This document shows, piece by piece, positions 47,973-51,395 of a DNA stretch of 56,022 bases. Location: positions 1 through 56,022 of the forward strand of contig JAFZYE010000027.1 of assembly GCA_017616445.1 (NCBI GenBank), written 5' to 3'. Within the stretch, counting starts at the first letter, position 1, and each line of letters begins with the position of its first letter. The notes under the pieces were generated by a model. The model was not told the DNA's origin. It worked only from the letters and a program-made list of their open reading frames with translations, and made no database searches. Origin of the DNA: Bacteroidaceae bacterium (GTDB lineage: Bacteria; Bacteroidota; Bacteroidia; Bacteroidales; Bacteroidaceae). A program made the translations under genes and the position numbers.

Positions 47973-48372
47973 AACGAAGATAGCAGCATGTCTGCTGGTA
48001 ATGATGTTGGTGTTCACGGCTTGTCAAGAGAGTAAGCGAGACCGTTTTGCACGTGAGGCACGCGAGTACACAGAAAAGAACTGTCCGCATGCAGAATTTG
48101 GCGATGTCATCTTTCTCGACAGCCTTACTTGTCCTAATGATGGAAGCAACACACTGACCTATCATTATTCGATTCATGGTGATTCGACAGATGTTGCCGC
48201 AGTGGTAAATAATTACGACGATCTCTATTCTGCTTTGTTGGGAGCAGTACGTAACTCGATCGACCTGCGACATGTGAAGGCAGAGGGGTTGAACATAAAG
48301 TACACCTACAACAATTTTGAAACGGGTGAGGAGATCACTTCGTTCTGTTTCAAGCCTGAGGACTATAACTGA
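47965..48372 (+). CDS. Small lipoprotein (135 aa)
   Basis: The signal peptide ends LVFTAC (Cys20) and is followed by QESKRDRF. The mature part is acidic with FGDVIFLDSLTCPNDGSNTL, a beta-rich middle and a C-terminal YTYNNFETGEEITSFCFKP. It overlaps the TSCPD gene by 8 bp and its TGA shares one base with the next ATG, so it belongs to a compact operon. No family recognised. Confidence 0.75.
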   Translation: MNRTKIAACLLVMMLVFTACQESKRDRFAREAREYTEKNCPHAEFGDVIFLDSLTCPNDGSNTLTYHYSIHGDSTDVAAVVNNYDDLYSALLGAVRNSIDLRHVKAEGLNIKYTYNNFETGEEITSFCFKPEDYN

Positions 48373-48860
48373 TGACGAAGGACGAGCGGATACTACGTGC
48401 CAGAGAGTTGTTCCTGCAAGGGTATAACTGTTCACAATCGGTTTTCTGTGCTTACGCAGACGATTACAAGATGCCGCTCGAACTGGCCTTGAGAGTCTCA
48501 GCATCGTTGGGTGGAGGAATCGCACGTATGCGCGAAACTTGTGGAGCTGTTTGTGGAATGGCGATGTTGGTTGGGATGGAAGAAGGACAGACACAGCCTA
48601 ACGACCCCCAGCAGAAGCAGAAGAACTATAAGATAGTGCAACAACTGGCGGGTGAGTTCCGTGAGAAGCATGGAAGCATCAAATGTTCCGAGTTGTTAGG
48701 ACTACGTAAAGATGCACCTATAGATACTGTGCCCGAAGAACGTACAGCTGAGTATTATAAGAAACGTCCCTGCTTGCGGATGATAGAATCTGCAGTAGCA
48801 ATATTTGAAGACTGGAAGGATGGCAGAGTGGACGATCGCGCTGGTCTCGAAAACCGGTAA
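48372..48860 (+). CDS. C-GCAxxG-C-C family protein, 3' end inside a tRNA gene
   Basis: 162 aa. LFLQGYNCSQSVFCAYA, then GGGIARMRETCGAVCGMAMLVGM and CSELLGL contain the conserved Cys pattern of the C-GCAxxG-C-C family, likely a redox or metal-binding fold. The start overlaps the stop of the preceding gene (TGATG). The last 15 codons (from W148) and the stop lie within the tRNA-Ser gene that starts at 48814, so the C terminus KDGRVDDRAGLENR is read from tRNA sequence. The natural C terminus may have been replaced by recombination at the tRNA. Confidence 0.85.
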   Translation: MTKDERILRARELFLQGYNCSQSVFCAYADDYKMPLELALRVSASLGGGIARMRETCGAVCGMAMLVGMEEGQTQPNDPQQKQKNYKIVQQLAGEFREKHGSIKCSELLGLRKDAPIDTVPEERTAEYYKKRPCLRMIESAVAIFEDWKDGRVDDRAGLENR

Positions 48861-48900
48861 ACGGGTAACCGTTTCGGGGGTTCGAATCCCCCTCCTTCCG
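48814..48900 (+). tRNA. tRNA-Ser (anticodon CGA)
   Basis: 87 nt. The acceptor stem GGAAGGA pairs with TCCTTCC; the anticodon arm is CTGGT-CTCGAAA-ACCGG with anticodon CGA; the long variable arm is AAACGG-GTAA-CCGTTT (class II); the T arm is GGGGG-TTCGAAT-CCCCC; the discriminator is G. CCA is not encoded. The D stem has one A-C mismatch. Reads UCG codons. The 5' half overlaps the preceding coding region. Confidence 0.93.
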
Positions 48901-48907
48901 CAAAAGC
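48885..48907 (+). repeat. 23-bp direct repeat at the tRNA-Ser 3' end, copy 1
   Basis: AATCCCCCTCCTTCCGCAAA followed by AGC, identical at 48943-48965. It spans the T-stem to the acceptor end, the part of a tRNA used by many integrases. Confidence 0.9.
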
Positions 48908-48920
48908 ATTTCCAATGCTC

Positions 48921-48965
48921 GGAAGGGGATAGGCACTAAGCCAATCCCCCTCCTTCCGCAAAAGC
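48921..48965 (+). repeat. tRNA-Ser-like remnant with repeat copy 2
   Basis: Begins GGAAGGGGAT and ends with the 23-bp copy of the tRNA 3' end, so both acceptor-stem strands are present around only about 12 internal bases. It may be an eroded tandem tRNA copy or an old attachment site. Confidence 0.65.
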
Positions 48966-49612: not shown

Positions 49613-49642
49613 TAACTTTGCACCCGTGATTCGTAAACGAAT
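49613..49642 (+). promoter_or_regulatory. Promoter and 5' hairpin of the cobalamin riboswitch transcript
   Basis: TAACTTTG at 49613-49620; no clear TTTG at -33. A perfect ATTCG-TAAA-CGAAT hairpin lies at 49629-49642, just upstream of the riboswitch core. Confidence 0.6.
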
Positions 49643-49649
49643 TGCCCGT

Positions 49650-49802
49650 GAAGGTTCGCATAGCCGCGATTAATTGGGAACCGAGGTGAGAATCCCCGAC
49701 TGTCCCGCAGCAGTGAACTCCATTCTAACTGACCGACAACAAGCCATTGTCCGCAAGGATGAGAAGGCGTCGCGAAGTGGAGCAAGTCTGAAGACCAGCC
49801 TT
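49650..49802 (+). promoter_or_regulatory. Cobalamin (B12) riboswitch
   Basis: Shows the full run of conserved blocks: GAAGGTTCGC, TTAATTGGGAA, GGTGAGAATCCCCGAC, CTGTCCCGCAGCAGTGA (B12 box region), GCCATTG..GATGAGAAGGCG, and the 3' AGTCTGAAGACCAGCC. It lies about 87 nt before the SLC13 transporter start. It belongs to the AdoCbl/cobalamin family. In most bacteria cobalamin binding lowers expression of the downstream gene, so the transporter should be made when B12 is scarce. Confidence 0.92.
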
Positions 49803-49889
49803 TTCGGTTAAAAATGTCGATTGTCTTCGATGTAAGGACATGAGGCACAAGAATTATTTTTATTATCAGTTCATTAATAAAGGATTATT

Positions 49890-51395
49890 ATGTTCAAAAA
49901 TTTCAGTGGGTACAACCTCATTGAGGCATATCATAAGATGCGTCATGAGCAGAAGTACCGCCCAGGAAGGGTAATGAAGAAATGTATTGAGGCCGCAATC
50001 GTGTTGATTGTGACACTCGTGTTGTGGAATCTTCCAAGTAGTGCGTTTGGTATGGAGGGTTTGACGGTGGTACAGCAGCGCATCATCGCAATTTTCGCTT
50101 TTGCCACTCTCGCGTGGATTCTGGAAGTAGTGCCGTCGTGGGCTACTTCGGTAGGTATCATCGGCATGATGCTGCTCTTCTGTAGTGATTCAGGAATCAA
50201 ACCTATGTGCAACCCCGATGAAGTAGGTGCGGTGTTGTCTTACAAAGGTGTAATGGCATGTTTTGCCGATCCTGTTATCATGCTGTTCATCGGTGGATTT
50301 ATCTTGGCTATCGCAGCCACGAAGACGGGTCTCGATGCTCAGTTGGCCAAGGTGTTGCTCGTTCCGTTTGGTAAGAAGAGTAATAATGTGTTGCTGGGTT
50401 TCCTTCTCATCACGGGTCTGTTCTCAATGTTTGTATCCAATACTGCAACAGCAGCGATGATGCTTACGTTCCTCACGCCTGTGTTCCGTCAGTTGCCTGC
50501 TAACGGAAAGGGTCGCATTGCATTGGCACTTTCCATTCCTGTCGCTGCCAATCTTGGCGGTATGGGTACACCTATCGGAACACCACCAAATACCATCGCG
50601 CTGAAGTATCTGAACGACCCTGAGGGCCTGAACCTCGGAATCGGATTCGGACAATGGATGCTCATCATGGTTCCGCTGGTACTCGTATTATTGTTCGTAG
50701 CATGGATTCTGTTGCGTAAGTTGTTCCCATTCACACAGAAAACTATTGAACTCACCATTGAGGGTGGTATGAAAAAAGGTGTTCAGTCGAAGATTGTTAT
50801 CGTTACTTTCATTGTGACCGTACTCCTGTGGTTGCTCGATAGCGTTACTGGTATCAACAGCTACACTGTAGCCCTCATACCGTTCGTCGTGTTCTCGATG
50901 ACAGGTGTCATCTCGCGTCAGGATTTGGAAGAAATCAACTGGAGTGTTATCTGGATGGTAGCAGGTGGATTCGCGCTCGGTTACGGACTCAACCAGTCGG
51001 GTTTGGCTGAACTGGCTGTAGAGAGCATACCGTTTGGCGACTTCTCACCAATTCTCATCCTCATCATCTCTGGTATCATCTGCTATATCCTTTCAAACTT
51101 CATTTCCAACTCAGCTACTGCTGCTCTTCTGATGCCTATCTTGGCTATCGTGTGTGGAGCTATGGGTGACAAACTGGATGCAATCGGTGGTACATCTACC
51201 GTACTCATCGGAGTGGCTGTTGCAGCCAGCTCTGCTATGGTGCTTCCTATTTCTACACCTCCAAATGCATTAGCTTACGCTACGAATCTTGTTACTCAGA
51301 AGGATATGGCACGTATTGGACTTATCGTCGGTCTCATTTCTATGGGACTTGGTTACGGAGTCCTCTATCTCATCGGAAATCTTCACGTAATTTAA
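49890..51395 (+). CDS. DASS/SLC13-family anion permease under B12 riboswitch control
   Basis: 501 aa with about 11-13 membrane segments. The duplicated family signature is present: FVSNTATAAMMLTFLTPV with GGMGTPIGTPPNTIAL in the first half, and LSNFISNSATAALLMPIL with PISTPPNALAYA in the second. These SNT and TPPN motifs bind sodium and the carboxylate substrate. The family moves succinate, malate, citrate or sulfate with sodium, and some members export or exchange. It is the only gene behind the riboswitch. No substrate can be fixed from sequence, but dicarboxylate transport fits the B12 control, because methylmalonyl-CoA mutase needs B12 to turn succinate into propionate. Confidence 0.9.
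   Translation: MFKNFSGYNLIEAYHKMRHEQKYRPGRVMKKCIEAAIVLIVTLVLWNLPSSAFGMEGLTVVQQRIIAIFAFATLAWILEVVPSWATSVGIIGMMLLFCSDSGIKPMCNPDEVGAVLSYKGVMACFADPVIMLFIGGFILAIAATKTGLDAQLAKVLLVPFGKKSNNVLLGFLLITGLFSMFVSNTATAAMMLTFLTPVFRQLPANGKGRIALALSIPVAANLGGMGTPIGTPPNTIALKYLNDPEGLNLGIGFGQWMLIMVPLVLVLLFVAWILLRKLFPFTQKTIELTIEGGMKKGVQSKIVIVTFIVTVLLWLLDSVTGINSYTVALIPFVVFSMTGVISRQDLEEINWSVIWMVAGGFALGYGLNQSGLAELAVESIPFGDFSPILILIISGIICYILSNFISNSATAALLMPILAIVCGAMGDKLDAIGGTSTVLIGVAVAASSAMVLPISTPPNALAYATNLVTQKDMARIGLIVGLISMGLGYGVLYLIGNLHVI

What the first reader, a model, noticed from the sequence alone, without database searches (positions are those of the whole stretch)
49613..51395. B12 riboswitch controlling a DASS/SLC13 transporter: possible succinate switch
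B12 riboswitches usually control B12 uptake, synthesis or B12-independent isoenzymes. Here the only gene behind it is an SLC13-type permease. In Bacteroidales, B12-dependent methylmalonyl-CoA mutase turns succinate into propionate; without B12 succinate is the end product. A riboswitch that turns the transporter on when B12 is low would match export (or exchange) of surplus succinate. This links vitamin status to the fermentation product released.
Basis: partly seen in the sequence, partly recalled or inferred. Interest (0 to 1): 0.78.

Follow-up and report, generated by a model that had tools for sequence, protein, structure and literature searches.

The report
B12 riboswitch on a dicarboxylate transporter
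A vitamin B12-sensing RNA switch sits directly in front of a gene for a sodium-coupled dicarboxylate (probably succinate) transporter, and related bacteria repeatedly place this kind of transporter under B12 control or beside the genes that turn succinate into propionate, which would tie vitamin supply to the fermentation acid released.

Summary
An RF00174 cobalamin riboswitch (49635-49817, 88.6 bits, cut-off 31.5) stands 72 nt before a single DASS/SLC13 gene (49890-51395). In the genus, 7 of 7 homologs with at least 60% identity carry it; the other readable riboswitches there mostly precede genes that look like B12 uptake (22 of 24). On a tree of 195 homologs the linkage needs at least 12 changes: recurrent and patchy. 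Context points to the succinate-propionate fork. The own genome has B12-dependent methylmalonyl-CoA mutase. Homologs elsewhere lie head-to-head with mutA(B), beside an AspT/AAE permease (family of the Corynebacterium succinate exporter SucE), or first in a riboswitch operon before a biotin carboxylase (9 of 9 loci in one genus). Three Bacteroides-like genomes have riboswitch-carboxylase-AAE instead. Export is not shown: motifs are cotransporter-like, and a Phascolarctobacterium SLC13 protein is read as a succinate importer. Homologs without riboswitch also occur in mutase genomes, and the riboswitch-mutase association is not significant after phylogenetic pairing. Best reading: a B12-starvation switch on C4-dicarboxylate (probably succinate) flux, direction open; a known riboswitch class on an apparently undescribed kind of target.

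The parts
49635..49817 (+). cobalamin riboswitch aptamer (RF00174)
   Evidence: cmscan 88.6 bits, E 1.3e-20, model 1-189 of 189
49822..49840 (+). P13-like hairpin after the aptamer, loop with CGATG invariant in the 10 leaders aligned; likely part of the expression platform
   Evidence: 94% of cells paired against 67% in shuffles and covariation score 0.90 against 0.40, 0 of 500 shuffles reach either; 5 of 5 pairs have changes on both sides, which 38 of 500 shuffles also reach. I placed the stem by eye, on the 10 most alike of 28 directly linked leaders; folding of the window's leader alone was not significant (z -0.66)
49890..51395 (+). DASS/SLC13 family transporter, 501 aa, apparently monocistronic
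   Evidence: TIGR00785 246.5 bits; nearest solved bacterial relative VcINDY, E 5.6e-37
50436..50444 (+). first SNT motif (residues 183-185, in SNTATAAMM), as in VcINDY
   Evidence: alignments
51105..51113 (+). second SNT-type motif, here SNS (residues 406-408, SNSATAALL)
   Evidence: alignments

Best explanation
The leader is a cobalamin riboswitch that keeps a Na+-coupled DASS transporter off when B12 is plentiful and lets it be made when B12 is scarce. The transporter handles a C4-dicarboxylate, most likely succinate, which piles up when B12-dependent methylmalonyl-CoA mutase cannot pass it on to propionate. SHOWN: aptamer, position, sole target, recurrence, mutase genes in the genome, and neighbours of homologs at the succinate-propionate fork. 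INFERRED: OFF direction (from the class, and because in one relative, L254, the same switch heads an operon that also holds btuB- and btuF-like genes), succinate as substrate, and net direction. I put release a little ahead of uptake.
For: Riboswitch and gene. Genus: 7 of 7 homologs with at least 60% identity have the switch 64-128 nt upstream. Of 33 genus switches, 7 precede DASS; of the other 26, 20 first genes match a BtuB reference (5 of them only weakly, over 160-201 residues), 2 a BtuF-like reference, 2 neither, and 2 could not be read. Own mutA and mutB. DASS head-to-head with mutA in 4 loci of genus g2, mutB following where the flank reaches; AAE permease + DASS divergent from mutAB in 3 genomes of genus g9. 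AAE permease directly upstream of DASS in 10 loci (family scan on one of them); SucE, of the AAEx family, exports succinate in Corynebacterium (PMC12014714, passages). Riboswitch-DASS-biotin carboxylase in 9 of 9 riboswitch-DASS loci of genus g15, with BCCP and an MmdA/PccB-type subunit in the 3 read further. Riboswitch-carboxylase-AAE in 3 Bacteroides-like genomes. X. ruminicola KHP1 made propionate only with added cobalamin, with lower succinate (P = 0.07), and many of its strongest transcript changes lie next to its cobalamin riboswitches (PMC11575231, abstract, sections 15 and 17 part 1, and passages).
Against: The closest outside homologs of the family sample (70-77% identity, 10 loci) lack the switch, 5 of them in genomes with the mutase; only 8 of 80 named close homologs have it upstream. 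By genome, mutase is present in 20 of 21 riboswitch-DASS genomes against 47 of 83 others (naive Fisher p 6.5e-4), but 8 of 8 against 35 of 42 in the named set (p 0.58), and independent pairs give no significance. Motifs are cotransporter-like. 8 of 17 genus genomes show no DASS. A carboxylase switched on at low B12 is not readily explained by succinate release alone. No expression data for this gene were seen.
Confidence: 0.6

Rival explanations
1. Same switch, opposite flow: at low B12 the cell imports C4-dicarboxylates (succinate, fumarate, malate) with Na+.
For: Cotransporter-type motifs and best bacterial match to VcINDY; Phascolarctobacterium SLC13 genes read as succinate importers (PMC7568257, passages); a porin gene follows a DASS paralog in genus g24.
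Against: At low B12 succinate is an end product of such bacteria, so importing it then has no evident use (inference); the AAE permease beside some homologs belongs to a family with a known succinate exporter.
Confidence: 0.2
2. A cobalt or B12-precursor uptake system of the ordinary kind: a DASS/CitMHS-like protein that takes up metal-citrate under B12 control.
For: Best Pfam hit by E-value is CitMHS, and cobalt transporters are a standard target of this riboswitch (PMC3766115, passages).
Against: CbiC, a marker of corrin-ring synthesis, is found in 12 of 20 riboswitch-DASS genomes and missing in 8, among them genomes 92% and 99% complete, which should have little use for cobalt (inference); neighbours of homologs are mutAB, carboxylase and AAE genes; the only NCBIfam match is DASS.
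Confidence: 0.06
3. The transporter carries another anion (malonate, methylmalonate, sulfate, phosphate) needed when methylmalonyl-CoA is missing.
For: Carboxylase and DASS share riboswitch operons in genus g15; the yeast phosphate transporter PHO90 is the top solved relative by E-value.
Against: mutAB and AAE neighbours fit succinate directly; malonate-pathway genes were not noticed beside it but were not searched for.
Confidence: 0.1
4. The switch is a hitch-hiker copied from a btuB leader with no lasting role.
For: Patchy distribution; on a short-column DNA tree the DASS switches of two genomes lie near the btuB switches of the same genomes.
Against: Kept in 7 of 7 genus members; fewest changes 12 on the protein tree and 7 on the riboswitch tree; a covarying hairpin downstream.
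Confidence: 0.04

Closest known systems
Cobalamin riboswitch (Rfam RF00174)
   Same: Full-length model match far over the cut-off; same kind of leader position as at btuB.
   Different: Target is a dicarboxylate-type transporter. A 2013 survey groups targets as B12 biosynthesis, B12 and precursor transport, cobalt transport and isozymes of B12 enzymes (PMC3766115, passages).
VcINDY and SLC13 Na+/dicarboxylate cotransporters (DASS-C)
   Same: Same family, both SNT-type motifs, best bacterial match among solved structures.
   Different: Some 30-45 extra residues at the N-terminus; second motif SNS; under B12 control; substrate untested.
LaINDY-type DASS exchangers (DASS-E)
   Same: Same family; would suit succinate exchange.
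   Different: Profile match much weaker (8.7e-12 for entry 6wu1, which I recall to be LaINDY, against 5e-47 for VcINDY); the first motif reads SNTATAAMM as in VcINDY. That the exchangers' arginine lies just after the SNT is recalled.
Phascolarctobacterium faecium SLC13 transporters (PMC7568257)
   Same: A DASS gene in line with succinate-pathway genes.
   Different: Read by its authors as an importer; no riboswitch in the passages seen.
SucE / AAEx-family succinate exporters
   Same: A related permease stands before DASS homologs in 10 loci and ends riboswitch operons in 3 Bacteroides-like genomes.
   Different: Different family from DASS; not beside the window's gene.

Membership tests
RF00174 cobalamin riboswitch | covariance-model score over the curated cut-off | tested here: met
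   88.6 bits against 31.5
RF00174 cobalamin riboswitch | downstream expression-platform hairpin conserved by covariation | tested here: met
   (10 of 28 directly linked leaders; stem placed by eye before counting, so support rather than proof)
RF00174 cobalamin riboswitch | binds a cobalamin and lowers expression | not testable with these tools
   needs reporter or in-line probing
DASS/SLC13 (TIGR00785) | score over the curated cut-off | tested here: met
   246.5 against 198.6 bits
DASS-C Na+/dicarboxylate cotransporters | two SNT-type motifs that bind substrate and form part of the Na+ sites (PMC7553777, passages) | tested here: met
   SNT and SNS aligned to VcINDY
DASS-C Na+/dicarboxylate cotransporters | Na+-coupled dicarboxylate transport | not testable with these tools
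   needs transport assay
DASS-E exchangers (LaINDY type) | basic residues in place of Na+ at Na1 and Na2 | tested here: inconclusive
   none at the first motif by comparison with VcINDY; no residue-level alignment to LaINDY was made; weak profile match
B12-riboswitch cobalt-uptake systems | host makes the corrin ring and so needs cobalt | tested here: inconclusive
   CbiC in 12 of 20 riboswitch-DASS genomes, missing in 8, not found in the own 70%-complete genome; one marker only
B12-independent isozyme targets | gene product replaces a B12-dependent enzyme | tested here: not met
   the gene encodes a transporter, not an enzyme

The most novel reading that the evidence does not exclude
Bacteroidales have a B12-riboswitch regulon for the succinate-propionate fork. 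One riboswitch class has been recruited several times to control dicarboxylate transporters of two unrelated families (DASS and AAE/SucE-like), in some genera in one operon with a biotin-dependent acyl-CoA carboxylase, so that B12 supply sets both flux and release of succinate and thereby cross-feeding.
Probability: 0.4. Interest if true: 0.8.

Novelty: new variant of a known kind. Interest (0 to 1): 0.62.

Why it matters
Succinate and propionate released by Bacteroidales feed other gut and rumen microbes and the host. It is known that B12 decides which acid appears through the mutase; a direct genetic switch on acid transport would add a regulatory layer and give a defined leader and gene for testing it. 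It would also widen the list of B12 riboswitch targets beyond B12 and cobalt handling and isozymes.

Tried and rejected
Simple rule 'riboswitch where mutase, none where no mutase': naive association in the family sample, none in the named sample or in independent pairs; rejected as a general rule. Terminator and promoter scans around the leader: 2 and 4 sites against 1.9 and 3.5 expected, no terminator between aptamer and start. Single-sequence folding of ten leaders: only one of ten clearly more stable than shuffles. A regular expression for riboswitches found 5 of the 8 linked cases that the covariance model found; only the model's results are used. Exchanger reading of the DASS protein: not supported. 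A loop-loop pairing between the P13-like loop and L5 looked possible by eye in some btuB and g15 leaders but not in the window's clade; left open. Literature: the searches (open-access full text; one search listed 20 of 26 papers, 12 of 19) listed no paper whose title or abstract start links a cobalamin riboswitch with a DASS/SLC13 gene; supplementary tables could not be read, so Tables S5-S7 of PMC11575231 may hold such a case.

Rows dropped before counts: of the 150 DASS places shown (itself a cut list), 37 were not fetched then (genus g21, some g24; one, in G220, came later as L250). L138 and L144-L147 were scanned with model R1 only, not Rfam. 30 of 80 named genomes were not searched for the mutase. 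The 301 family genomes are an even draw, many incomplete. Wide flanks were fetched only for chosen loci, so neighbour counts are lower bounds. The 23 carboxylase operons read were chosen by me; of the 12 without riboswitch, L339 ends at a contig end just after the operon and L333 shows only 1.3 kb beyond it.

Full report
WHAT IS THERE. The window is a contig of a 70%-complete genome; the closest named relatives of its DASS gene come mainly from ruminant-stomach metagenomes labelled Prevotella or Bacteroidales. An RF00174 cobalamin riboswitch spans 49635-49817 at 88.6 bits, against a cut-off of 31.5. 72 nt later starts a 501-aa DASS/SLC13 gene, 49890-51395; the next long ORF lies on the other strand. 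One more such riboswitch was found in the genome, before a BtuB-like TonB receptor gene (TIGR01779 match, below its cut-off) followed by a DUF5074 gene.

IS IT MORE THAN CHANCE. In the 17 genomes of the genus, 9 have a DASS homolog; the 7 with at least 60% identity all have the riboswitch 64-128 nt upstream on the same strand, and the two at 47-51% have none on their contigs. Of the 33 riboswitches of the genus, 7 precede DASS. Of the other 26, 24 could be read: 20 first genes match a BtuB reference (5 of them weakly and in part), 2 a BtuF-like binding protein and 2 neither, though by eye they resemble TonB receptors. DASS is thus the only target seen in this genus that does not look like B12 uptake.

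HOW WIDE. I collected 114 homolog loci, nearly all from an even draw of 301 family genomes (37 of the 150 places shown were not fetched then), and 80 named ones. Rfam scans of 100 of them and a covariance model of my own put the riboswitch directly upstream, same strand, in 13 further loci of genera g15, g30 and g24, and in 8 of the 80 named loci (in one more, L179, it lies downstream). It is absent at the ten closest outside homologs of the family sample (70-77%). In two g6 loci a riboswitch lies next to DASS but faces a btuB-like gene. On a FastTree tree of 195 proteins the fewest changes of the linkage are 12 (29 linked rows, among them L250, where a peptidase-like gene lies between switch and DASS). 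On a short-column riboswitch tree DASS-linked and other switches need at least 7 changes. On these trees the association has been gained or lost many times.

EXPRESSION PLATFORM. The ten most alike of the 28 directly linked leaders share, just after the aptamer, a small hairpin with an invariant CGATG in its loop. 94% of cells pair (67% in shuffles) and no shuffle of 500 reaches this or the covariation score; all 5 pairs show changes on both sides, which 38 of 500 shuffles also do. I proposed the stem by eye, and related sequences can exceed shuffles, so this is support, not proof. Terminator scans gave nothing in the leader. The OFF direction is inferred.

GENOME CONTEXT OF HOMOLOGS. The own genome has mutA and mutB of B12-dependent methylmalonyl-CoA mutase on another contig. 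In genus g2, DASS is head-to-head with mutA in four loci, with mutB following where the flank reaches. In genus g9, an AspT/AAE permease stands directly before DASS and the pair is divergent from mutAB in three genomes; AAE-DASS adjacency occurs in 10 loci of g9 and g2. [quoted passage not shown] In genus g15, 9 of 9 riboswitch-DASS loci are followed by a biotin carboxylase. In the three read further, BCCP and an MmdA/PccB-type carboxyltransferase follow (TIGR01117 719 bits, below its cut-off of 998.8), and in one (L254) the same-strand genes run on into a btuB-like, an unassigned and a BtuF-like gene with no second riboswitch.

A SECOND FINDING. That carboxylase operon is itself a riboswitch target. 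The switch lies directly upstream of the biotin carboxylase in 14 of 32 loci scanned. Of 23 operons that I chose and read, 11 have the switch; 3 of those 11 (Bacteroides-like g3) end in the AAE permease, and none of the 12 without a switch shows it, one of these being cut off by a contig end. So transporters of two unrelated families share B12-switch operons with the same carboxylase. At E 1e-60 the carboxylase was found in 84 of 301 genomes and in none of the 17 of the window's genus.

TESTS THAT WENT AGAINST A SIMPLE STORY. Mutase is present in 20 of 21 riboswitch-DASS genomes of the family sample (G220 counted in) against 47 of 83 others (naive p 6.5e-4), but 8 of 8 against 35 of 42 in the 50 named genomes searched, and independent pairs on the tree are not significant. 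8 of 17 genus genomes have the mutase but no DASS hit; they are 59-90% complete. The protein has VcINDY-like motifs and its profile matches the entries that I recall to be LaINDY poorly; the eLife paper states that exchangers carry basic residues at the cation sites (PMC7553777, passages). A Na+ cotransporter can run outward only if the succinate gradient outweighs the Na+ gradient (my inference), so export is possible but not shown. What an acyl-CoA carboxylase does at low B12 is unexplained; one guess is an ATP-driven replacement for carboxyl groups otherwise drawn from methylmalonyl-CoA.

RIVAL: COBALT. CbiC, a corrin-ring marker, is present in 12 of 20 riboswitch-DASS genomes (G220 not counted) and missing in 8, among them 92% and 99% complete ones, which speaks against cobalt uptake as the general purpose.

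LITERATURE. X. ruminicola KHP1 makes propionate only with added cobalamin, has four predicted cobalamin riboswitches, two of them next to B12 genes, and many of its largest transcript changes lie next to riboswitches; the passages and sections I read do not name a DASS gene, and a term search of the main text found neither DASS, SLC13 nor symporter (PMC11575231). The 2013 survey of cobalamin riboswitch regulons lists four target classes, none of them dicarboxylate transport (PMC3766115, passages). My searches listed no paper on this link, within an open-access library and without supplements.

VERDICT. Observation confirmed; interpretation partly supported. A known riboswitch class stands before an apparently undescribed target type, with recurrent and suggestive context. 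B12 response, substrate and direction await experiment.

Noticed in passing
L291 8325-14063 (G222); L322, L323; L290, L292: A cobalamin riboswitch heads a biotin carboxylase-BCCP-MmdA/PccB-type operon in several genera, ending in an AspT/AAE (SucE-like) permease in three Bacteroides-like genomes.
   Followed up: partly
301 family genomes: A biotin carboxylase (E up to 1e-60) was found in only 84 of 301 genomes and in none of the window's genus, raising the question how these bacteria make malonyl-CoA.
   Followed up: no
L250 6641-11291 (G220): Riboswitch before a peptidase-like gene (by eye), a DASS paralog (52-55% identity) and a porin, divergent from genes that include CbiC.
   Followed up: partly
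L066/L253 and L100/L252: DASS lies back-to-back with a riboswitch and btuB-like gene in two genomes of genus g6 without a mutase hit.
   Followed up: partly
48885-48907 and 48943-48965: A 23-nt stretch covering the 3' end of the tRNA gene is repeated downstream, as after insertion at a tRNA attachment site; no integrase was looked for.
   Followed up: no
48372-48860 and 48814-48900: A 162-aa ORF overlaps the tRNA gene by 47 nt.
   Followed up: no
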